22,392 bases of DNA, taken from positions 1 through 22,392 of the IMG/VR virus record IMGVR_UViG_3300042429_001131. One strand, given 5' to 3'. Position 1 is the first letter of the stretch, and each line of letters opens with the position of its first letter. This document shows, one piece after another, positions 1 through 9,687 of the stretch. The DNA is from a virus. The notes below the pieces were generated by a model that saw nothing but the letters and a program-made list of their open reading frames with translations, did not search any database and had not been told where the DNA came from. The translations under genes were made by a program, and so were the position numbers.

Positions 1-108
1 AATTTCACCGTTTTTCTTCAATATATTAGACAAAGACTCCATTGAAATATCGAAAATCACTCCAGTCTCTTTATCTCTTAGAGTTATGATACTATTCCCT
101 TCAACACA
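1..108 (-). other. Intein N-terminal segment inside the large terminase
   Basis: The segment starts at Cys173 of the terminase and runs CVEGNSIITLRDKETG, then an I-x-M-E-S-L stretch, to the window edge (36 residues seen). This matches intein block A: Cys1, a small polar stretch, a hydrophobic strand, then a basic turn with T-G and a second strand. It falls just after R-G-S-T-I-Q, where gp17 homologues go straight into the Walker B strand, so it interrupts conserved extein sequence. Inteins at conserved terminase sites are known, including the naturally split AceL-TerL intein. Whether this one is contiguous or split, and whether it carries a homing endonuclease, cannot be seen here. Confidence 0.82.
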
Positions 109-624
109 TTGGATGGTGCTTCCCCGTGCTGCTGAACTACTTGTAGTTGCAATTCCAATATTAGAACCATTGGAAAATTCGGTGCTTTCCTGACCCCATG
201 TTGTAACTCCGGGTTTCAACCAGTTGGGCAATTCCTCATATGCCAATTTGACACGCTTGAAGATCATTTTGGCAGTGTCTTCCTTGTTTGCAACGATCAC
301 GGTATTTCTATAATCCTTGAAACAAGTCTCATGCAATGCCAAGATGGTTAGACATGTAGTTTTTCCCGATTGACGGCTTGAGTTTACAATATTGAATCTA
401 TTATCCCTAAAAGCATTTAATAACCTTTTCTGATATGGTAACAAGGGAATTTTTATCTTCCCCAAATCCGGCTCAATAATAAAGAAATAATTTTCTGCAA
501 AATATAAAATATCATCTTTACATTTTTGAATCTCCACCACCATTTCTGGAGTATATTCAAACGTAGCATTTGCAGTGGGAAGATTCGGATTCCCCATGTA
601 AGAATGTTTCTTTTTAGCTGCCAT
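1..624 (-). CDS. Terminase large subunit (T4 gp17-like), N-terminal part, interrupted by an intein
   Basis: This is the motor ATPase that packages DNA into the prohead. The gene is partial: 208 codons run from the ATG at 624 to the left edge with the frame still open. Residues 64-65 (YQ) fit the adenine-binding Q motif, and residues 82-90 (SSRQSGKTT) are a Walker A loop of the T4 gp17 type (SRQxGKTT). Residues about 145-170 follow the gp17 pattern LPxxLxPGxxxW, NGSxIG and SSxxAxRG that leads to the Walker B strand. Instead of Walker B, residue 173 is a Cys that opens an intein-like sequence. The start is fixed by the first ATG and a CTAAATA box 6 nt upstream. The stop codon of the upstream neck-like gene lies inside that box. 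The family call is from recognised motifs and order of motifs; the C-terminal nuclease lies outside the window. Confidence 0.9.
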   Translation of the reverse strand, partial: MAAKKKHSYMGNPNLPTANATFEYTPEMVVEIQKCKDDILYFAENYFFIIEPDLGKIKIPLLPYQKRLLNAFRDNRFNIVNSSRQSGKTTCLTILALHETCFKDYRNTVIVANKEDTAKMIFKRVKLAYEELPNWLKPGVTTWGQESTEFSNGSNIGIATTSSSAARGSTIQCVEGNSIITLRDKETGVIFDISMESLSNILKKNGEI

Positions 625-630
625 TTGTAT

Positions 631-636
631 TATTTA
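631..636 (-). promoter_or_regulatory. YTAAATA late-promoter-like box of the terminase gene
   Basis: Minus-strand CTAAATA, then 6 nt, then the terminase ATG at 624. The TAA of the box is also the stop codon of the upstream neck-like gene. It resembles the T4 late promoter TATAAATA. Confidence 0.6.
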
Positions 637-1425
637 GAAATAATTCCCGTAAACACTACCATCACTACCTCCGGTGGATGGGGGGAACACATCCCTTTGC
701 ACGATTTCATCGGAATTTTGTGTATAAATCTTGTTATCGTCCAGCACACTTGAGAGTTCGGGGAACATGACGGAGGACAGCTTGCCAAAATACGAATTGT
801 CTGCAATCTGCTGGTTATATTCCTCCCTTGGTTCGTTGGTGGTGAAGTTATGCTCACTACGGACAGCTTTGAGCCTCCACACATAATGTCCCATTGCTGG
901 ATTGAGTTCCGCCTGATCCTCATCTAAGGCTTCTGTCACCTCAAATATCTTGGCTCCCCTACCATTTGGTCTATCACAACCGAATGGATACACAATGATC
1001 TTATCCTGTGATTTGGGTTCCACTGGATGGTTCTGGAAATAGCTTAGGGATGCGAATTTTGTTTCGAAATCGTCAATATGTAGATATAATGTTATGGTAT
1101 CGGGAGAATCCATACCAGCCAGAGCATATATGGGGGAACCGTTCTCCATCTGGATATATGCCTTGATTTCCACGGCACTCAACCAATACATGGTTGTATG
1201 TTCCCCATATATGGAATTCATCTGATCGGGTTCAAACGTGTTGACTTGGTATCCGATTGTCACTCCATAGTTATTGATAAGTTCCCCAAATTGGGAATTG
1301 AATATTGCCCGTTCCGCCTGAAAGTTGGACGGATCGGCAAATCCCCCACAATTGGGGCGATAAACACCAGCGAAGATGTTTTCAGGGGTGAGACATGATA
1401 AAGGTATTGTAGGACATCCAGCCAT
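634..1425 (-). CDS. Putative neck protein (T4 gp14-like)
   Basis: A 263-aa protein that I assign only tentatively. In T4, gp14 is a 256-aa neck protein that joins the filled head to the tail, and it is encoded a little upstream of gp17; here the gene sits directly before the terminase. The middle has the pattern Y-G-E-H-T-T-M-Y-W-L followed by a stretch S-Q-D-K-I-I-V-Y-P-F and K-I-F-E-V-T-E-A-L, which resembles the part of gp14 where a flat strand (D-L-I-Y-F-P) leads to F-E-I-x-x-V. The C-terminus is rich in Gly, Ser and acidic residues. There is no signal peptide or membrane segment. Its ATG shares one base with the stop of the upstream gene (TAATG at 1423-1427), so it is probably translated by coupling; it has no clean YTAAATA box. 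A different head-completion or connector protein is possible. Confidence 0.5.
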   Translation of the reverse strand: MAGCPTIPLSCLTPENIFAGVYRPNCGGFADPSNFQAERAIFNSQFGELINNYGVTIGYQVNTFEPDQMNSIYGEHTTMYWLSAVEIKAYIQMENGSPIYALAGMDSPDTITLYLHIDDFETKFASLSYFQNHPVEPKSQDKIIVYPFGCDRPNGRGAKIFEVTEALDEDQAELNPAMGHYVWRLKAVRSEHNFTTNEPREEYNQQIADNSYFGKLSSVMFPELSSVLDDNKIYTQNSDEIVQRDVFPPSTGGSDGSVYGNYF

Positions 1426-1781
1426 TATTTTTTAATTTCTACGATTTTCCCACATTGTTGCCCATGAAGATTTGTAAACAGCTTCAATATCTGATTGCTA
1501 TTTTTTCTTTTGATCTCCTTACCATCCTTGAACTCCACACCATTGAGTTGTCCCAATTCTTTCAACAGATCATCCCCAATCAAAATCTCTCCCGCTGTTC
1601 TGATCTTCTTATATGGTCCTTTGTTCCAAGGTATCTTTCTTGTGAGGGGATCGATTGTGATGTTTTCACCCTTCCCATTACTCGGATGAATGGATTGTTT
1701 GATACCCCCAAAACCATCCTTGTGTCGATACTCAAGTATCACACCATTGCGCTCTTCGAAAAATTCCAGAAAGGACTTCAT
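1425..1781 (-). CDS. 118-aa hypothetical phage protein with capsid-targeting-like N-terminus
   Basis: I do not recognise the family. The start is set at the ATG at 1781, five codons inside the longest open frame (which would begin with TTG at 1796), because a TTAAATA box lies 5 nt upstream. The N-terminus M-K-S-F-L-E-F-F-E-E resembles the capsid-targeting peptide of T4 internal protein III (M-K-T-Y-Q-E-F-I-A-E). The rest is basic and soluble, with a Gly/Lys-rich middle (residues about 15-50) and a hydrophobic-basic C-terminus. An intrinsic terminator lies directly upstream, so it is probably transcribed from its own promoter together with the neck-like gene, whose ATG overlaps its stop. The location among head genes fits a small head or packaged protein, but that is inference. 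Confidence 0.7.
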   Translation of the reverse strand: MKSFLEFFEERNGVILEYRHKDGFGGIKQSIHPSNGKGENITIDPLTRKIPWNKGPYKKIRTAGEILIGDDLLKELGQLNGVEFKDGKEIKRKNSNQILKLFTNLHGQQCGKIVEIKK

Positions 1782-1786
1782 GATAC

Positions 1787-1792
1787 TATTTA
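1787..1792 (-). promoter_or_regulatory. YTAAATA late-promoter-like box of the 118-aa gene
   Basis: Minus-strand TTAAATA, then GTATC, then ATG. The box begins within 2 nt of the U-tract of the terminator at 1795-1826, so if that terminator works, transcription of the next gene has to start at this box. Confidence 0.65.
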
Positions 1793-1794
1793 AC

Positions 1795-1826
1795 AAAAAA
1801 AGAGGGAATCATCACGATCCCCTCTT
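1795..1826 (-). terminator. Intrinsic terminator after the acidic head/core gene
   Basis: Read on the minus strand, AAGAGGGGATC (1826-1816), loop GTGAT, and GATTCCCTCTT (1810-1800) form an 11-bp stem with one G-T pair, followed by a run of T (1799-1795). It starts about 26 nt after the stop codon at 1852. Confidence 0.8.
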
Positions 1827-1851
1827 CTTAGGTTTATTTTTTTTATTCACA

Positions 1852-2490
1852 TCAACGGAAGAAGTCTTCCGCTTGTCTGATGTCTGAAACTTTGTTCTGT
1901 TTGCCCATATCGGGTTGTCTTGCACCATGGAGAGCATGACCGTAATCACCGTCATTACCAACCTTATCGGTGGTTCCCACTACCTTGGTTTTTTGACCCT
2001 TTGGTTGGGGACGACCATTAACCTTGTTGCTACGACCTTGGAGTTTGTGTTGTTGACCACCACCTTTGCCATCCTTGGCACCTACGGTTCCGTCATTACC
2101 AACCTTATCAGTTGGGAAGGTTCCGCGCTCTTCATCTTCGTCATAAGAGAAATCGTCATCCTCTTCTTCGTTGTCTTCATCCATTTCATCATCTCCACCA
2201 AAATCATCTTCGGTATCAAAGTCAAGATCATCATCTTCACCCATGTCCATGTCTTCTTCTCCACCACCGACAGCGGCTTGAAGTAGGTCGAGGAATTGTT
2301 GGGCAACGGCACGATCAATGGTAAGAGTAACTTGATCCTCTTCACCACCAAATTCGTCATCTCCAAACTCATCGTCCATGGGGGCATCACCAAGGCCAAG
2401 GGCATCAACTTCTTGAGCATCCTCTTGTTGGTCAAAATTATTACCCATAACGGATTCAAACAACTTATCAAATGTAGATTTCTTAGTCAT
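1852..2490 (-). CDS. Possible nested C-terminal product of the acidic head gene
   Basis: ATG at 2490 (codon 139 of the 350-aa frame) is preceded by CTAAATA and a 5-nt spacer, the same arrangement as at the other late genes. The 212-aa product would begin MTKKSTFDKLFESVMG, which matches the F-D-x-[LV]-[YF]-E-S pattern at the N-termini of three other proteins in this window. The box also encodes residues L-N-T-F of the long form, so chance is not excluded. Nested in-frame scaffold genes are known (for example lambda C/Nu3), and this would be a similar arrangement. Confidence 0.5.
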   Translation of the reverse strand: MTKKSTFDKLFESVMGNNFDQQEDAQEVDALGLGDAPMDDEFGDDEFGGEEDQVTLTIDRAVAQQFLDLLQAAVGGGEEDMDMGEDDDLDFDTEDDFGGDDEMDEDNEEEDDDFSYDEDEERGTFPTDKVGNDGTVGAKDGKGGGQQHKLQGRSNKVNGRPQPKGQKTKVVGTTDKVGNDGDYGHALHGARQPDMGKQNKVSDIRQAEDFFR

Positions 2491-2904
2491 AAATGTATTT
2501 AGTCTATCTCTTGCAATTTTTTTGGATTCCTTGTGAATTCTCTCTTCCGCTTCCTCTCTTTGGATTCCACTCTCCATTCTTGCAATTTCTTTTTTAAGAG
2601 ATTCTTTCTGTTTATCAGAAAGATTGGGATTCTTCAACTTTTCTTTAAGCTTATCAAGATTATCATACTTACGCTCTTCATCCTCATCATAAGTATCATT
2701 CAGAGCTTTATGATAACCGCTTTTCTCAGATGGGCCACCTTTTTGCAAGGGATTTGTTTCATTGAAAGCGTTTTTGGATTGCTTGGGAATTTTTTTGGAC
2801 TTGTTGATCACTTCATCAGCACATAGATCACATTTTTCCTCCACTACGGCAACTTTTTTAAGCATTTGTCCGTAGATATCCCCCAATGTTGGTTGTTTTT
2901 TCAT
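1852..2904 (-). CDS. Acidic head/prohead-core-like protein with internal in-frame start
   Basis: A 350-aa protein of unrecognised family. Residues 1-138 are charged and helical, with a Lys/Glu-rich coiled-coil stretch at about 75-130 and a C-x-x-C (residues about 25-28). Residues about 139-155 (MTKKSTFDKLFESVMG) look like a fresh N-terminus. Residues 170-260 are extremely acidic (Asp/Glu/Gly runs) around a compact segment V-T-L-T-I-D-R-A-V-A-Q-Q-F-L-D-L-L. The C-terminal 90 residues are Gly/Lys-rich and contain T-D-K-V-G-N-D-G twice. Acidic, low-complexity composition next to neck and terminase genes fits a prohead core, scaffold or internal protein, but I cannot name a T4 counterpart. The start has a TTAAATA box 6 nt upstream, and an intrinsic terminator follows the stop. 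Confidence 0.72.
   Translation of the reverse strand: MKKQPTLGDIYGQMLKKVAVVEEKCDLCADEVINKSKKIPKQSKNAFNETNPLQKGGPSEKSGYHKALNDTYDEDEERKYDNLDKLKEKLKNPNLSDKQKESLKKEIARMESGIQREEAEERIHKESKKIARDRLNTFMTKKSTFDKLFESVMGNNFDQQEDAQEVDALGLGDAPMDDEFGDDEFGGEEDQVTLTIDRAVAQQFLDLLQAAVGGGEEDMDMGEDDDLDFDTEDDFGGDDEMDEDNEEEDDDFSYDEDEERGTFPTDKVGNDGTVGAKDGKGGGQQHKLQGRSNKVNGRPQPKGQKTKVVGTTDKVGNDGDYGHALHGARQPDMGKQNKVSDIRQAEDFFR
2496..2501 (-). promoter_or_regulatory. Internal YTAAATA box within the acidic head gene
   Basis: Minus-strand CTAAATA, CATTT, ATG (2490). It lies inside an open reading frame, unlike the other boxes. Confidence 0.45.
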
Positions 2905-2910
2905 ATAAAG

Positions 2911-2916
2911 TATTTA
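2911..2916 (-). promoter_or_regulatory. YTAAATA box of the 350-aa acidic head gene
   Basis: Minus-strand TTAAATA, CTTTAT, ATG (2904), within a 36-bp gap. Confidence 0.6.
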
Positions 2917-2940
2917 ATGATTGTCGATGATTTTTCAATA

Positions 2941-3351
2941 TTATACTGTGAGTGATGCTCCCAACGTGAATAATTCATCAATTTCATCAGAATCTAATCC
3001 AAGCACTGTCGCAATATTGAGTATGGTTGGGGAATTTCTTTCGAAATTTGCCCCGTTTTGAAATGCAGTAATGGCCAATATCTTTTCAGCACCATCGGGA
3101 AGAGCGTTGAGAATTTGAACAACTGCATCATATAATGTTGCATCACCATAAGGAGTAAGCTTGAGTGCCGTATGTGCTTGCCAAGCCGATATAGAGTTTG
3201 ACAATCCGTTTTTTAAACTCACTTCAAACTTATCAGCATTGTTAGAACTACCCTCCCAAATTGTATAAGGAGTGGATGTGGTAGTTCCTTCCGCATTATC
3301 AATACGTTCGATAATTTCTTTAGTGTCTGCGTTGTAAATGATACGTGTCAT
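2941..3351 (-). CDS. Small tail-fibre-associated protein
   Basis: A 136-aa protein encoded 4 bp after the tail-fibre gene. The N-terminus (M-T-R-I-I-Y-N-A-D-T-K-E-I-I-E-R) is a short strand-turn-strand. The C-terminal half has a helical pattern ending R-N-S-P-T-I-L-x-I-A-x-x-L-G-L-D-S-D-E-I-D-E-L-F, preceded by a segment with A-L-P-D-G. This 'L-x-A-L-P ... R-x-S-P-x-x-x-x-L-x-x-x-L-G-L-x-x-x-x-I-D-x-L-F' layout is common in small phage proteins encoded next to tail or fibre genes; their role (assembly or minor tail component) is not settled. The start ATG has only a degenerate CTAATATC before it, so it is probably read from the fibre mRNA. No signal peptide or membrane segment is visible. Confidence 0.65.
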   Translation of the reverse strand: MTRIIYNADTKEIIERIDNAEGTTTSTPYTIWEGSSNNADKFEVSLKNGLSNSISAWQAHTALKLTPYGDATLYDAVVQILNALPDGAEKILAITAFQNGANFERNSPTILNIATVLGLDSDEIDELFTLGASLTV

Positions 3352-3355
3352 GATA

Positions 3356-4699
3356 TTAGGCGTTAAGTGTTACCGTAGCTCCACGGGCAATGAGAGTATT
3401 TCGAGCAGTTACGGCGGCGGGTGTTAGTGCGGCAAGACCAGAACTAGTTCCCCCTGATAAATTAACTGCCCTACCCGATCCCCATGTGGTTGTTCCGTTG
3501 GTTCCGTTGAGAGTTGCAAGAGCCACTAGAATGTTCTCAACACTAGCTTGGGTGAGGGCTGCACCAGTTATTGAGACGGGACCACCGATATTTTTAAGAG
3601 TTCCGTTTGTGGGTATAGTTACATTAGCCAATGATGGAGTGACGCTGGTAGAGATACCAGACCCAACAGTAACTAAAGCTGGAAGACTTAACGTAGTGAG
3701 GGACGACATGTTGTTTGGCGAAACGAATCCACCAACAGTAACTAAAGCTGGAAGACTTAACGTAGTGAGGGACGACATGTTGTTTGGCGAAACGAATCCA
3801 CCAACAGTAGTTAGAGCCGAGGCACTTAAAGTAGTGAGGGAACCCATAAATGCTGGGTTAAGATTACCCCCAACTGTAGTCAATGCTGGAATACTTAAAG
3901 TTGGGAGGGAAGCCATGTTGTTTGGGGTAAAACTACCCCCAACTGTAGTTAGAGCTGGAAGACTTATTACTGTGAGATTAGCTGCACTGGCAGGAGCAAA
4001 CGTGGTTCCGACTGTAGTTAGAGCTGGAAGACTTATTACTGTGAGATTAGCTGCACTGGCAGGAGCAAACATGGTTCCAACTGTGGTCAATACAGGTAAG
4101 TTAAAAGCGGTGAGAGACGGCATATTAGTAGGAATGATACCACCCCCCACAGTCATCAATGTTGGAAAACTCAAGGTATTGAGTGTAGTCATATTGGTAG
4201 TGTTCAAACTCAACCTAATTGTAGATAGGGATGGGAAACTTAACGTGCTTAGAGAAGGAAGTGCGCTTGAAGTCAAATTACCTCCGATGAAAGCCAGACT
4301 AGAAAGGTTTACACTAGAAAGTGTCGGTATATTAGTGGGGTTATAGTCATTGGCAATCATTACCAAATCAGGTAATGAGATTCCCGTAAGTGTAGTTGCA
4401 CCCAATTCATTAGGAGAAAATCCACTTACACATGGTTTTGGATCGGTGACTCCATTAGATGTGACAATACGTATATCTAATGGGATTAGCATGATCGGTT
4501 GTGATGGTGTGCCTGTTAGTGTCATTATGGGCATACGAGAAGATTGTGATGCCTCAATTTGTTCATTGGCTCCAATGTTGGTGTATATCAATATATTACT
4601 AAGAGATGCGGTATAAGTATCCCCCGATTGGTTCAATATAAAACTCTCATGCCCATCGATGGGATTCGGTGCTACATCTAATTGGGAAATCTTTGGCAT
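3356..4699 (-). CDS. Tail fibre / adhesin with 23-residue leucine-rich-type repeats
   Basis: A 447-aa receptor-binding candidate. The start is the ATG at 4699, 38 codons inside the longest open frame, because TTAAATA lies 5 nt upstream and the longer frame would overlap the divergent gene. Residues 1-50 (PKISQL, P-x-D-G, L-x-x-x-G-x-x-x-x-x-x-S-x-x-x-I-L) look like the virion-attachment N-terminus of many phage fibres. The middle is about eleven repeats of 23 residues of the form LxxLSLPALTTVGGxxxPNN, like the BspA/TpLRR leucine-rich class found in surface adhesins. The C-terminus has N-G-T-N-G-T-T-x-W-G-S-G and an A-x-x-A-R-x-x-L-x-x-R-G-A-T-V-T-L-N-A ending, frequent in such proteins. Two repeat pairs are nearly identical at the DNA level, so the array may expand or contract. 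It is followed after 4 bp by a small fibre-associated gene. Confidence 0.8.
   Translation of the reverse strand: MPKISQLDVAPNPIDGHESFILNQSGDTYTASLSNILIYTNIGANEQIEASQSSRMPIMTLTGTPSQPIMLIPLDIRIVTSNGVTDPKPCVSGFSPNELGATTLTGISLPDLVMIANDYNPTNIPTLSSVNLSSLAFIGGNLTSSALPSLSTLSFPSLSTIRLSLNTTNMTTLNTLSFPTLMTVGGGIIPTNMPSLTAFNLPVLTTVGTMFAPASAANLTVISLPALTTVGTTFAPASAANLTVISLPALTTVGGSFTPNNMASLPTLSIPALTTVGGNLNPAFMGSLTTLSASALTTVGGFVSPNNMSSLTTLSLPALVTVGGFVSPNNMSSLTTLSLPALVTVGSGISTSVTPSLANVTIPTNGTLKNIGGPVSITGAALTQASVENILVALATLNGTNGTTTWGSGRAVNLSGGTSSGLAALTPAAVTARNTLIARGATVTLNA
3663..3800. repeat. Perfect 69-bp tandem duplication in the tail-fibre gene
   Basis: Copies at 3663-3731 and 3732-3800 appear identical base for base and extend about 9 bp into the next, diverged unit. 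Each encodes one 23-residue repeat. Identity without silent changes points to recent duplication. Confidence 0.92.
3942..4079. repeat. Near-perfect 69-bp tandem duplication in the tail-fibre gene
   Basis: Copies at 3942-4010 and 4011-4079 differ at two positions near their ends (GTGGTTCCG versus ATGGTTCCA). They encode two adjacent 23-residue repeats containing A-P-A-S-A-A-N-L-T. Confidence 0.9.
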
Positions 4700-4704
4700 G
4701 GTAA

Positions 4705-4710
4705 TATTTA
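4705..4710 (-). promoter_or_regulatory. YTAAATA box of the tail-fibre gene
   Basis: Minus-strand TTAAATA, TTACC, ATG (4699). It shares the 52-bp divergent gap with a plus-strand TAAATA at 4733-4738. Confidence 0.6.
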
Positions 4711-4714
4711 ACGA

Positions 4715-4742
4715 TTGACATATCAAAAACTCTAAATAAATC
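4715..4742 (+). promoter_or_regulatory. Possible promoter of the sugar / clamp-loader operon
   Basis: A perfect -35 hexamer TTGACA (4715-4720) and a TAAATA at 4733-4738 precede the 73-aa gene. The spacing to TAAATA is only 12 nt, and the 16-nt alternative TAAATC is a poor -10, so the call is weak. TAAATA here is 13 nt from the ATG, unlike the 5-6 nt at late genes. Confidence 0.35.
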
Positions 4743-4751
4743 CCTACATCA

Positions 4752-4973
4752 ATGAAGAAAAACACAATACTAAAAAAATTGGAACTCCACGAAGAGAAAA
4801 TCATAAAATCCATAACAGATTTACAGGATTTTCTTCATACCGTGGATGATGAGGAAATTTCTCAAATGGCAGACGATCTATGTGAGACTTTACAAGAATG
4901 TCTATATGAGAATGACATTTGCAATTTGGAAAACATCAGGGAATTTGTAGAAAACGTATATGAACAAGCTTAA
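4752..4973 (+). CDS. 73-aa acidic helical protein of unknown function
   Basis: A small protein I do not recognise. It is predicted almost fully helical from its heptad-like Leu/Ile spacing (L-K-K-L-E-L-H-E-E-K-I-I-K-S-I) and is acidic in the middle, with three Cys. It is the first gene after the divergent gap and overlaps the next gene by 14 bp (4960-4973), so it belongs to the operon leading to the sugar genes and the clamp loader. Its reality is supported by that overlap and by the fibre gene's corrected start, which removes the conflict between them. There is no obvious Shine-Dalgarno sequence. Confidence 0.65.
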   Translation: MKKNTILKKLELHEEKIIKSITDLQDFLHTVDDEEISQMADDLCETLQECLYENDICNLENIREFVENVYEQA

Positions 4974-5877
4974 TTTATTAATTTTAGGAAAGGGTTACGT
5001 TGGTAATCATCTTCACAATCATTTGAAAAATGATTTCAATGTGATTATTAGATCGGCGGAAGAAATAGATTACCATAAAATGGAAATCCTTCATAAATTT
5101 CTTCTCAATAATGATATTGACACCGTAATAAATTGTTCGGGTTTCACTGGAAGACCCAATATCGATGAAGCGGAGAGAAAAAAAGAACTTTGCTGGGAAC
5201 TCAACACCGCTTCCCCTCTAAGGATAAATACCGTATGCAATTTGAGAGGTGTTAATTATCTTCATGTTTCATCCGGCTGTGTTTATGATGGTTATGAAAA
5301 GGTGTGGAATGAGGAAGATTCCCCGAATTATGGATTATTCTGTAATAGAGCTTCATTCTATTCCAAATCCAAACATGCCTTTGAAAACCTATCAAAAACC
5401 ATGGATAACGTAATTCTACGGGTTCGTATGCCATTTCATTATGAATCATCCGGTAGGAATTATCTGGATAAGATTCGCCAATACAACGATCTGATCAATT
5501 TCCGCAATTCCAAGACATATATTCCCGATTTCTGCGAATTCGTAAAGAATCTCTTGATTAAAAAAGTTGGTAAATGGAAAGGACAGGATATTTATAATGT
5601 CATCAATCCGGGAGCATTGACTACTCAGGAAGTATGTGATACCATGAAAGAATACGGATTCCACAACGATAATTGGAAATTTGTATATCTTGCCGATCTT
5701 CCCATTGCCACTGGTAGGAGCAATTGCGTTCTGGATGGCTCAAAATCAAAAGAAATCTACGAGATGAGATTTGAGAAAGATGTGATGAAAGAGTGCTTTG
5801 AGAAAATGCTTGAGAAACAAGCGGAAGATAAAAGAATTAAAAACGAAATAGAGGAGAAATATGCAAGAAATGATTAA
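4960..5877 (+). CDS. Extended-SDR sugar-nucleotide reductase/epimerase, RmlD-like
   Basis: A 305-aa NAD(P)-dependent enzyme of the extended short-chain dehydrogenase family. Residues 10-15 (GKGYVG) are the Rossmann GxGxxG loop, S104-S105 fit the active-site serine region in HVSSGCVYDG, and Y134-S-K-S-K138 is the catalytic YxxxK. The short length and the overall layout are closest to dTDP-4-dehydrorhamnose reductase (RmlD) and the related plant 3,5-epimerase/4-reductase. The likely reaction is reduction of a nucleotide-linked 4-keto sugar. The next gene is an RmlA-like nucleotidyltransferase that overlaps it by 17 bp, so the two probably act in the same pathway; no RmlB or RmlC is in the window. 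The last 30 residues are a charged helix. Exact substrate unknown. The start overlaps the preceding gene and lacks a Shine-Dalgarno sequence. Confidence 0.85.
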   Translation: MNKLNLLILGKGYVGNHLHNHLKNDFNVIIRSAEEIDYHKMEILHKFLLNNDIDTVINCSGFTGRPNIDEAERKKELCWELNTASPLRINTVCNLRGVNYLHVSSGCVYDGYEKVWNEEDSPNYGLFCNRASFYSKSKHAFENLSKTMDNVILRVRMPFHYESSGRNYLDKIRQYNDLINFRNSKTYIPDFCEFVKNLLIKKVGKWKGQDIYNVINPGALTTQEVCDTMKEYGFHNDNWKFVYLADLPIATGRSNCVLDGSKSKEIYEMRFEKDVMKECFEKMLEKQAEDKRIKNEIEEKYARND

Positions 5878-6613
5878 ACGTGGAATTGTGCTTTCTGGAG
5901 GAAAAGCCACGAGATTATACCCGATTACCAAGGTTATATCGAAGCAACTTTTACCAATTTTCAACAAGCCCTGCATCGCATTTCCACTTCAAACGCTGAA
6001 AGATATGGGATATTTTGATATTCTCATCATTAATGCCGACGAGGATCAACAGAAACAATTCAAGATTCTACTTGGAGATGGGAGTAAATTCGGATTAAAT
6101 CTATCATACGCAATCCAAGATTCTCCCAAAGGATTAGTCGATGCTTTTATCGTTGGGGAAGAATTTGTCAAAGATGCAGATGAAATCTGCCTGATTCTTG
6201 GTGATAATGTTATTATTGGTAATTCCCCAATACAACCACAACCGAACACCATCTACACATATAAAGTGAAAGACCCATCCGCCTATGGTGTGGTTGAAAC
6301 AGATGAAGATGGCAATATTATTCAAATTGTGGAGAAACCGAAAGAATTTATTTCCGAAGATGCAGTGATTGGTCTTTATGTGTTTTCCAATGAAGTTGTG
6401 GAAATGGCTAAGAAAGTCAAACCATCTGCTAGAGGAGAACTGGAAATTGTTGACCTGATTCGCATGATGAATGATAAAGAAGGTGTTGGTGTTGAGAAAT
6501 TGGATGGATTTTGGTTCGACATTGGTGACACTAATTCGCTCCTAGACTGTGCAAATTTGGTTCGGACTATTGACAATCGCTCAAACCATGCTATTGGTTT
6601 GGTAGGCATATGA
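5861..6613 (+). CDS. rmlA: RmlA-like glucose-1-phosphate thymidylyltransferase (short form)
   Basis: A 250-aa nucleotidyltransferase that would make dTDP-glucose (or a related NDP-sugar) from sugar-1-phosphate and an NTP. Motifs follow RmlA in order: LSGGKATRLYPIT (residues 11-23; the usual G-x-G-T-R-L is G-K-A-T-R-L here), KQLLPIFNKP (28-37), LLGDGSKFGLNLSY (70-83), SPKGL (88-92), LGDN (113-116, metal/nucleotide site), EKPKE (158-162), GLYVF (171-175), GELEIVDL (192-199) and a W-F-D-I-G-D-T segment near 218-224. Typical RmlA is about 290 residues; about 40 C-terminal residues of the helical oligomer/allosteric region are missing, so feedback control may be altered. GAGGAG just upstream of ATG 5861 is one of the few clear Shine-Dalgarno sequences; an ATG three codons later is an alternative. 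The stop overlaps the clamp-loader start (ATGA). Confidence 0.88.
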   Translation: MQEMIKRGIVLSGGKATRLYPITKVISKQLLPIFNKPCIAFPLQTLKDMGYFDILIINADEDQQKQFKILLGDGSKFGLNLSYAIQDSPKGLVDAFIVGEEFVKDADEICLILGDNVIIGNSPIQPQPNTIYTYKVKDPSAYGVVETDEDGNIIQIVEKPKEFISEDAVIGLYVFSNEVVEMAKKVKPSARGELEIVDLIRMMNDKEGVGVEKLDGFWFDIGDTNSLLDCANLVRTIDNRSNHAIGLVGI

Positions 6614-7524
6614 GCAATCCTTGGACAGAACGTTACAGACCACAGACGCTAGACGATTTAATGGTGGATGATACCACCAGAAAAATCATTGAAGATTTTG
6701 GCAAAGATGTTCCAAATCTATTATTGACGGGGGTTTGTGGTGTTGGTAAGACAACCTTGGCTAAAATATTGGCAAAGGATATCCTGAATTGTGATTATCT
6801 TTATATCAATGCTTCGGATGAGAATGGGGTGGACACAATCAGGGACAAAGTTATCGGGTTCTCTCAAACGAAGAGTTTTGATGGGGGATTGAAAATCGTC
6901 ATTTTGGATGAGGCTGATTATCTCTCAAAAAGTTCCATGGCTATCTTGAGGAATGTGATGGAATCCTATTCATCCACCACACGCTTCATCCTCACAGGCA
7001 ATTACAAACATCGCATCATTCCCGCCCTACAATCGCGTTGCCAGAGTCTCACACTTCATACATCCCTGAGAGATGTCACCCGTAGGTGTCTGGAGATTCT
7101 TAAAAAAGAAAATGTTGAGATTCCGAATGAACAAAAGAAACCTTTGGTTGCTCTGATCAAAAGCCATTATCCTGATATCAGGAAATGTATCAACGAATTG
7201 GAAAAATATTCCAATTCGGGGATTCTCTCCATTGAGACGAAAAAAGACACTAATCAGGTGATGGATTTGATATATGTAAATCTCCAATCGGGAGATACCC
7301 TGAAAACCCGCAAATTCCTGATTGAGAATGAGGAATTATTTGATTCTGACCATGAATCACTTTTGAAAGACCTATTGAATTATTTCTATGATCTCTCCAT
7401 AGATGATACCATGAAAAAACAGGCTATCCTTATCATTGCGGAGAGCCTGTTTAAGATGATTTCCGTAACGGACAGAGAGATTTGTGCTATTGCTTGCTTA
7501 CTACAGCTTGAGGAATTGTTTTAA
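6610..7524 (+). CDS. Clamp-loader ATPase subunit (T4 gp44 / RFC small-subunit-like)
   Basis: A 304-aa AAA+ protein that would load the sliding clamp onto primer-template DNA for phage replication and, in T4, for late transcription. Residues 5-11 (WTERYRP) are the RFC box; 41-49 (GVCGVGKTT) are Walker A; 100-103 (DEAD) Walker B; T129-G-N131 sensor 1; S142-R-C144 the arginine-finger SRC motif. T4 gp44 is 319 aa. The partner gp62 is not visible next door. It is the last gene of the operon starting at 4752, sharing ATGA with the sugar nucleotidyltransferase, which is an unusual neighbour for a replication gene. Its TAA stop overlaps the stop codon of the opposite-strand gene at 7521. Confidence 0.93.
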   Translation: MSNPWTERYRPQTLDDLMVDDTTRKIIEDFGKDVPNLLLTGVCGVGKTTLAKILAKDILNCDYLYINASDENGVDTIRDKVIGFSQTKSFDGGLKIVILDEADYLSKSSMAILRNVMESYSSTTRFILTGNYKHRIIPALQSRCQSLTLHTSLRDVTRRCLEILKKENVEIPNEQKKPLVALIKSHYPDIRKCINELEKYSNSGILSIETKKDTNQVMDLIYVNLQSGDTLKTRKFLIENEELFDSDHESLLKDLLNYFYDLSIDDTMKKQAILIIAESLFKMISVTDREICAIACLLQLEELF

Positions 7525-8772: not shown

Positions 8773-9687
8773 CTATTTACCCATTTCCTCCAATCTTTTT
8801 ATTCTATTATTCTTTCTAGCTTGTAACATTTTAATTTTTTGTTCCTCTGAGATTCCTCTATTTTTAGCGGATATTCTCATTTTTTCTTTAGATTCCTCCG
8901 ACATTTTCTTACCTTTTTGAGATTCTCCTATTTTTCTTTTATGTTCTTCGGTATGTTTCCTCCCCATTATTTTTTGTCTATGCTCTTCTGTCCATTTTTT
9001 ACCCAAACGGGCTTTTCTCGCCTTTTCAGCATGTTCGGGCGATAATTTTCTACCCCTAAGCTTATTTTTATGTTCTTCGGAAAGTTTTTTTCCCATATTA
9101 GCTTGTCTCAATTTTTCTATGGTTTCTGGCGATTTAACTCTTCCAGTGTGTAATATTCTCAATTTTTCTTTTGTTTCATCAGAATGTTTCTTACCTATGT
9201 TAGCTTGTCGAACCTTTTCTTTATGTTCTTCTGTTAATTTTTTACCTAATTGTGCTTGTCTCATCTTTTTTTTAGTTTCTTCAGAAAACGTTCTACCCAA
9301 TAATGATTGTCTAATATTTTCTCTGTGTTTATCTGATAAAGGCTTACCACCAGTATCCGTTGAATACTCACATATATTATATCCTTTATCATGATTAGTA
9401 GATTCAAATAATTTGATGTAGTATGATTCCCTATCAAGTAACCGATCATTATCACCAACACCATCAAAATTTTCAAAAATCTCTAAAATCTCAACTGAGA
9501 AATTCTCCCAACCATGTTTTGTTATAGCATTCTGTAAGCGATATTTATTAGTGGTAAATTTAGCACAATTTTTGTGTCTATTAATTCTTTTATATAAATT
9601 AGTAGCTTTGCCGATATACACCTTGCCATTGTTATTACAGATTAATTTGTATATTCCCGCCGATTCTGGATATTCTCTTACTCTCAT
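8773..9687 (-). CDS. Free-standing GIY-YIG homing endonuclease with NUMOD3 repeats
   Basis: A 304-aa mobile endonuclease. G11-I-Y13 and Y24-I-G26 give the GIY-YIG core, R34 fits the catalytic arginine and E87 (L-D-R-E-S-Y-Y-I) the metal-binding glutamate. From about residue 112 to the end there are about eleven copies of a NUMOD3-like DNA-binding module (G-K-K-x-S-E-E-H-K-x-K-x-R) of 13-17 residues. This is the layout of T4 Seg endonucleases, but with more modules than usual. It cuts intron- or endonuclease-free alleles and so spreads its own gene. No intron is evident. The sequence is more AT-rich than its neighbours, which fits transfer. It has a late-type CTAAATA box 5 nt before the ATG. 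Confidence 0.95.
   Translation of the reverse strand: MRVREYPESAGIYKLICNNNGKVYIGKATNLYKRINRHKNCAKFTTNKYRLQNAITKHGWENFSVEILEIFENFDGVGDNDRLLDRESYYIKLFESTNHDKGYNICEYSTDTGGKPLSDKHRENIRQSLLGRTFSEETKKKMRQAQLGKKLTEEHKEKVRQANIGKKHSDETKEKLRILHTGRVKSPETIEKLRQANMGKKLSEEHKNKLRGRKLSPEHAEKARKARLGKKWTEEHRQKIMGRKHTEEHKRKIGESQKGKKMSEESKEKMRISAKNRGISEEQKIKMLQARKNNRIKRLEEMGK

What the first reader, a model, noticed from the sequence alone, without database searches (positions are those of the whole stretch)
1..108. Intein inserted in the ATPase domain of the large terminase
Cys173 followed by CVEGNSIITLRDKETG and an I-x-M-E-x-L stretch fits intein block A. It breaks the gp17 sequence just before the Walker B strand. 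Terminase inteins include naturally split, very fast ones (AceL-TerL), so this may be a useful or split member. At least 36 intein residues are contiguous here, longer than the 25-residue AceL-TerL N-fragment as I recall it.
Basis: partly seen in the sequence, partly recalled or inferred. Interest (0 to 1): 0.72.

Follow-up and report, generated by a model that had tools for sequence, protein, structure and literature searches.

The report
Split intein breaking phage packaging motor
In this T4-type phage the gene for the DNA-packaging motor (terminase) is broken in two by a self-joining protein element (a split intein) with a DNA-cutting homing gene in the gap, so the motor should have to be pieced together after translation; the arrangement is known in outline, but this family shows unusually many stages of how such broken genes arise.

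Summary
The window is the whole 22,392-b record, so terL runs off its edge after 36 intein residues. Two IMG/VR contigs 98-99% identical to the window continue it. L041 shows the whole arrangement: TerL-N plus a 42-residue IntN, then a stop; a separate GIY-YIG endonuclease ORF; then a 114-residue IntC fused to TerL-C, with junctions STIQ|CVEG... and ...ILSKN|CLLLDE (Walker B). TerL catalytic motifs are intact, and intein and endonuclease are under purifying selection. The three-ORF cassette recurs at the same residue in other phages (L005, L044, L046, L047). IntC's best PDB match is CatC, the consensus intein with the atypical split site. So this is a naturally, atypically split intein in a 'fractured gene', a known kind; a GIY-YIG in a fractured gene is published too. 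Less expected is the family: four terL insertion sites, empty-site relatives ~91-95% identical near the site, and contiguous, IntN-endonuclease-fused, endonuclease-IntC-fused and fully separated forms, plus one terL fractured twice (L047). Several cultured T4-like phages carry relatives labelled only 'terminase large subunit' in two pieces. Trans-splicing and homing themselves are inferred, not shown.

The parts
109..624 (-). TerL N-extein, residues 1-172 (T4 gp17-like ATPase, upstream part)
   Evidence: phmmer to gp17 2o0h, E 6.4e-37, residues 5-172; Pfam Terminase_6N
355..381 (-). Walker A motif SSRQSGKTT (residues 82-90), intact; the same place is a second intein site in relatives (GK|TT)
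   Evidence: sequence; relatives L015, L031, L035, L038
1..108 (-). IntN, first 36 of 42 residues (CVEGNSIITLRDKETGVIFDISMESLSNILKKNGEI...); continues on L041/L003 with DTFLVE then stop
   Evidence: leave-out profile E 1.3e-7
106..108 (-). Codon TGT of Cys1, the predicted N-terminal splice nucleophile (TerL Cys173)
   Evidence: invariant C1 in 14 aligned TerL IntN; junction shown by empty-site alignment
631..636 (-). TAAATA, T4-late-promoter-like element 6 nt upstream of the terL start codon
   Evidence: same motif 5-6 nt (once 13 nt) before the start of 13 of 20 window genes

Best explanation
terL of this T4-type phage is a 'fractured gene'. It makes two polypeptides, TerL-N/IntN(42) and IntC(114)/TerL-C, split between intein block A and block B. 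The two intein halves bind and fold into one HINT domain. Cys1 starts the N-S acyl shift, Cys+1 (first residue of CLLLDELAW) takes over the N-extein, Asn114 cyclises, and TerL with joined Walker A and Walker B is released. The GIY-YIG gene in the gap makes a homing endonuclease that cuts intein-free terL at this site, so repair copies the whole cassette. Shown: gene layout, junctions, homology, purifying selection, recurrence at one site. Inferred: trans-splicing, its need for packaging, cutting and homing.
For: Three-ORF layout on L041 and L003 (98-99% identical to the window) and on L005, and again on L044, L046 and L047 at the same TerL residue. Precise junctions against empty-site DNA of L015 (TerL ~91-95% identical near the site), where IntN and IntC abut one Cys codon. 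Leave-out profiles: IntN E 1.3e-7, IntC E 7e-23. IntC: Pfam Intein_splicing 4.7e-6, though below the curated cut-off. Best PDB relative 6dsl_B CatC: profile E 5.9e-26, single sequence 1.2e-7; Foldseek lists inteins, including 6dsl, titled as having an atypical split site. pN/pS between L002 and L005: IntN 0.25, IntC 0.28, endonuclease 0.24, against TerL 0.18-0.23. Walker A, Walker B, TSTP and nuclease motifs all kept. GIY-YIG Pfam 4.1e-9 with conserved Y, YIG, R, E, N positions. No Rfam intron match.
Against: The window itself ends inside IntN; stop, endonuclease and IntC are read from contigs of the same population, not from this record. Catalytic residues deviate: Lys instead of His before the last Asn, and Asn instead of the block F His of L005, so splicing could be slow. 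The AlphaFold model of IntC alone is weak (mean pLDDT 59). No splicing or cleavage data exist.
Confidence: 0.88

Rival explanations
1. Genes in pieces without splicing: the two TerL fragments associate and work unjoined, as reported for a phage ribonucleotide reductase broken by a homing endonuclease gene, and the intein remnants are only tails.
For: Such a case is described in PMC10448857. IntC lacks the penultimate His and the block F His.
Against: IntN and IntC are full-length and under purifying selection. C1, TxxH and the Cys+1 junction persist across five divergent cassettes, more than tails would need.
Confidence: 0.07
2. A decayed or very slow intein: the element is recognisable but no longer splices efficiently in this lineage.
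For: Non-canonical C-terminal Lys-Asn and Asn for His in block F.
Against: The split intein AceL NrdHF lacks both conserved C-terminal His and still splices well (PMC7891396). TerL would be non-functional, yet its catalytic motifs are kept and pN/pS stays low.
Confidence: 0.07
3. Contiguous intein in the window strain: this record might carry an unbroken intein, the stop being peculiar to L041 and L003.
For: The record ends before the stop; contiguous TerL inteins exist at other sites (L035, SRB7757, VmeM-32).
Against: L041 and L003 agree with each other exactly beyond the window edge over 410 bases and match the window at 98-99%. L005 and the other site-b GIY-YIG cassettes L044, L046, L047 are all three-ORF.
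Confidence: 0.03
4. An RNA intron, or an assembly joint, rather than an intein.
For: T4-type phages often carry group I introns with GIY-YIG genes (PMC2988022).
Against: No Rfam match; the intervening protein matches intein profiles on both sides; the same structure occurs on several independent contigs and in distant phages.
Confidence: 0.01

Closest known systems
Atypically split inteins: Cat consensus (6dsl), AceL-TerL, VidaL (6vgv)
   Same: Break between block A and block B, short IntN, long IntC; IntC aligns to CatC over its whole length; host protein is TerL in AceL-TerL.
   Different: IntN has 42 residues, against 'about 15 to 25 aa' in PMC11923092, though the extra residues may be an unstructured tail. 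The insertion site is before Walker B; AceL-TerL as I recall it sits at the later ...|CEFL site (as L165). C-terminus KN rather than HN.
Fractured genes (Dassa et al. 2009, gkp095; paper not held, known from citations and recall)
   Same: Enzyme gene broken by a split intein with a free-standing endonuclease ORF in the gap.
   Different: TerL at a new insertion point; fused and doubly fractured relatives seen here. I could not check whether the 2009 set contains them.
AceL NrdHF split intein (PMC7891396)
   Same: Fractured-gene layout with a GIY-YIG endonuclease between the halves.
   Different: That one is class 3 (Ala1), split at the usual 98/48 point, in a ribonucleotide reductase gene.
Straboviridae TerL split inteins in public records (phiR1-RT, SEA1, pSe_SNUABM_01, PspYZU05, kaaroe, Thanatos-2)
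   Same: TerL broken by a homologous split intein with an endonuclease in the break.
   Different: Inserted about 11 residues further on (YIDE|C...SHN|CAFIPN); endonuclease of a TnsA-like family, in two phages fused to IntN. Annotated only as two 'terminase large subunit' genes or a hypothetical protein.

Membership tests
Class 1 intein (HINT) | Cys or Ser at position 1 with block A | tested here: met
   C1 invariant in A3; leave-out profile E 1.3e-7
Class 1 intein (HINT) | Block B TxxH | tested here: met
   TPKH in IntC; His54 invariant
Class 1 intein (HINT) | C-terminal Asn (or Gln) followed by Cys, Ser or Thr | tested here: met
   ...LSKN|CLLLDE in L002 and L005; SEQ|C or SHQ|C in L044, L046, L047, L004, L031
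Class 1 intein (HINT) | Penultimate His (usual, not universal) | tested here: not met
   Lys in L002 and L005; not required in all inteins (PMC7891396)
Class 1 intein (HINT) | Protein splicing activity | not testable with these tools
   needs expression
Naturally, atypically split intein | IntN and IntC on separate ORFs, break between blocks A and B | tested here: met
   stop after IntN at L041:1545; IntC starts at 2438; on the L041/L003 contigs, not in the window itself
Naturally, atypically split intein | IntN about 15-25 aa (PMC11923092) | tested here: inconclusive
   42 aa to the stop; the part aligned to relatives is about 35 aa
Fractured gene | Conserved enzyme gene broken by a split intein with a free-standing endonuclease ORF between | tested here: met
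   TerL-N/IntN, GIY-YIG ORF, IntC/TerL-C
Fractured gene | Endonuclease cuts the intein-free allele (homing) | not testable with these tools
   patchy distribution is compatible: empty site in L119, about 91-95% identical in the TerL flanks
GIY-YIG homing endonuclease | GIY-YIG domain with catalytic Y, R, E, N | tested here: met
   Pfam PF01541 4.1e-9; conserved Y-YIG, R30, E75, N91 in five cassettes
AceL-TerL orthologue | Same insertion site in TerL | tested here: not met
   window inserts before LLLDE; the ..EFE|C..SHN|CEFLGS site is occupied in L165; the site of AceL-TerL itself is from recall

The most novel reading that the evidence does not exclude
Endonuclease genes repeatedly invade TerL inteins at the loop between blocks A and B, not at the usual endonuclease point of inteins, and the outcome is gene fission. 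Relatives show an endonuclease-free contiguous form, all-in-one ORF, IntN-endonuclease fused, endonuclease-IntC fused, and three separate genes. This would be the natural route to atypically split inteins, and in L047 it has broken one terminase twice, so that it needs two trans-splicing reactions.
Probability: 0.45. Interest if true: 0.7.

Novelty: new member of a known kind. Interest (0 to 1): 0.5.

Why it matters
An essential packaging ATPase whose Walker A and Walker B lie on different polypeptides should depend entirely on protein trans-splicing. The family gives close relatives with and without the element, and contiguous and split sister inteins (L035 and L015). It also places endonucleases at a point where, according to PMC6801210, intein endonuclease domains are not found (all are said to sit at one conserved site). 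Cultured coliphages with homologous split TerL inteins make the question open to direct genetics. The short IntN pieces are also candidates for protein-labelling tools.

Tried and rejected
PDB search with the 36 residues alone gave only chance hits to designed beta-trefoils; NCBIfam is silent on them. The single-sequence AlphaFold model of the L035 mini-intein was useless (pLDDT 44) and was not used further; the IntC model is weak (59), and only its intein matches in Foldseek are cited. I first took the break to be the N35 split site of PMC6801210 (notebook). From residue spacing and my recall of the Npu DnaE and gp41-1 sequences it lies about ten residues before N35, so that claim was dropped. 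Group I or II intron: no Rfam match. Cultured phages with the best GIY-YIG matches (phiKT1024, Rhizobium phages) carry it in tRNA arrays, not in terL. The paper on fractured genes (10.1093/nar/gkp095) is not held. Deep branches of the intein tree are poorly supported, so no direction of change (fission or fusion) is claimed from it.

Full report
WHAT IS IN THE WINDOW. The window is a complete IMG/VR record of 22,392 b. On its minus strand terL starts at 624 and runs off at position 1. Residues 5-172 align with T4 gp17; the similarity ends at 172. Cys173 and 35 further residues follow. No library tried recognises those 36 residues alone. A profile built from IntN pieces of other TerL inteins, with the window and L005 left out, finds them as the only significant hit in all six frames (E 1.3e-7), far above 2000 shuffles.

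THE REST OF THE GENE. Contigs L041 and L003 are 99.0% and 98.1% identical to the window over the overlap, and identical to each other over 410 bases beyond it. L041 shows TerL-N/IntN ending in a stop (IntN L041:1417-1545, 42 residues), a 280-residue ORF (1591-2433), and a 535-residue ORF (2438-4045) made of a 114-residue IntC and TerL-C beginning CLLLDELAW. L003 carries the first ORF and the start of the second. The 280-residue protein has a GIY-YIG domain (Pfam 4.1e-9) related to homing endonucleases of T4-like phages. L005 (TerL 75-82% identical) has the same three ORFs. Aligned to the empty site of L015, the element sits exactly before the Cys codon.

IS IT FUNCTIONAL. Between L002 (the same contig as L041) and L005, pN/pS is 0.25 for IntN, 0.28 for IntC and 0.24 for the endonuclease, against 0.18 and 0.23 for the TerL parts. 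TerL keeps Walker A, Walker B, TSTP, GGDVSEG, IERNN and HDDRVMA. Block B (TPKH) and Asn|Cys at the end are present. The penultimate residue is Lys, and L002 has Asn where L005 has the block F His. A published split intein without both C-terminal His residues splices well (PMC7891396). Splicing here is an inference.

RELATIVES AT THE SAME POINT. The cassette IntN + GIY-YIG + IntC recurs as three ORFs at the same TerL residue in L044/L045, L046 and L047, whose endonucleases are 46-49% identical to that of L002. With L002 and L005 these form one supported clade of inteins (100/99). The C-terminal residue is Asn in L002 and L005 but Gln in L044, L046 and L047. L068 has IntN and GIY-YIG fused in one ORF; L085 has one ORF through IntN, a shortened GIY-YIG part and the start of IntC, up to its contig end. 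L004 and L031 carry another intein at the same point: IntN ends in an ORF that overlaps, in another frame, an ORF fusing an unclassified presumed endonuclease region (no Pfam match) to IntC ending SHQ|C. Many relatives have the site empty, including L119, about 91-95% identical to L002 in the TerL parts next to the site.

OTHER SITES. I call the sites a (Walker A, GK|TT), b (this one), c (YIDE|CAF, about 11 residues on) and d (EFE or EYD|CEFL or CSFL). At a, L015 is fractured with a different nuclease (weak match to MTES_1575), and its sister L035 is a contiguous 155-residue intein. At c lie the split inteins of the cultured phages phiR1-RT, SEA1, pSe_SNUABM_01 and PspYZU05 (three overlapping ORFs), kaaroe and Thanatos-2 (IntN-endonuclease fused, IntC separate), and contiguous forms in SRB7757, VmeM-32 and CP21. 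IntC of L002 finds 57 phage records in all; I examined twelve regions. At d, L165 has a GIY-YIG in the break and VP-1 an IntN-GIY-YIG fusion (by eye). L047 is fractured at b and d: five ORFs for one TerL. On the intein tree the split or contiguous label needs at least five changes, but deep branches are weak.

COMPARISON. IntC's best solved relative is CatC, the consensus intein with the atypical split site (6dsl), by sequence and it is among the Foldseek matches. Fractured genes with split inteins are known (Dassa et al. 2009, not held, cited in PMC10448857 and PMC6801210), and a GIY-YIG in such a break is reported for AceL NrdHF (PMC7891396). The window element is therefore a new member of a known kind. 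PMC6801210 states that all endonuclease domains in inteins sit at one conserved point. Here endonuclease genes sit between blocks A and B, in some relatives covalently fused to one intein half. In my limited search of open papers I found no description of this TerL series, but the absence of a hit in this library is weak evidence.

CONTROL ELEMENT. TAAATA ends within 15 nt before the start codon in 13 of 20 window genes, in 12 of them at 5-6 nt (binomial P 4e-22), while Shine-Dalgarno sequences are nearly absent. The same motif stands 5 nt before the endonuclease start in L005, L015 and L047 (second endonuclease), and as TAAGTA in L002 and L046, but not at that distance before the IntC ORFs. 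This suggests that the endonuclease brings a late-type promoter that may also transcribe IntC/TerL-C; not tested.

Noticed in passing
window, upstream of genes at 624, 1781, 2904, 4752, 8186, 8749, 9687, 9802, 12403, 14889, 16983 and others: TAAATA ends 5-6 nt (once 13 nt) before the start codon in 13 of 20 genes (expected 0.2; only 27 copies on both strands), with almost no Shine-Dalgarno: late-type promoters placed for leaderless mRNAs, or a non-SD start signal.
   Followed up: partly
L047 (IMGVR_UViG_3300016667_001080) 1198-5458: terL fractured twice: five ORFs, two different presumed endonucleases (one GIY-YIG, one without Pfam match), two split inteins, three TerL pieces.
   Followed up: partly
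L004 2632-2775 and 2681-; L031 5253-5348 and 5302-: IntN ORF overlaps the following ORF in another frame by 95 and 47 nt; that ORF fuses an unclassified presumed endonuclease to IntC ending SHQ|C. Overlapping genes or frameshifting not distinguished.
   Followed up: partly
L035 4545-5009 and L015 3285-5009: Sister inteins at the Walker A site, one contiguous (155 aa), one broken into a 32-aa IntN, nuclease ORF and IntC: a direct split/contiguous pair.
   Followed up: partly
L085 3889-4914: Single ORF through TerL-N, IntN, a shortened GIY-YIG segment and the start of IntC, cut by the contig end.
   Followed up: no
L031, L038, L039, L040, L044, L146, L165, Walker A site: Long inteins that look like LAGLIDADG inteins; most begin with Ala, with W, C and T at places that resemble class 3 inteins. 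Pfam LAGLIDADG checked on L031 only, the class by eye.
   Followed up: no
L110 (Campylobacter phage CP21) 94-4404: TerL with three inteins: contiguous at Walker A, fractured near Walker B with a T5orf172 nuclease, and contiguous just after it; the stretch 2564-3618 has no annotated gene.
   Followed up: partly
L112 (Vibrio phage vB_VmeM-32) 1075-1455: terL begins with an IntC at the Walker A site; the N-terminal part is not in the stretch read, so the gene is probably split there too.
   Followed up: no
window 8773-9687 (-): Free-standing GIY-YIG endonuclease with NUMOD3 repeats.
   Followed up: no
window 4960-7524 (+): RmlD-like and nucleotidyltransferase (RmlA-like) sugar-nucleotide genes directly before a T4 gp44-like clamp loader.
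   Followed up: no
window 3663-4115: 69-bp tandem repeats within the minus-strand ORF 3356-4678; L003 differs there by an indel, probably copy number.
   Followed up: no
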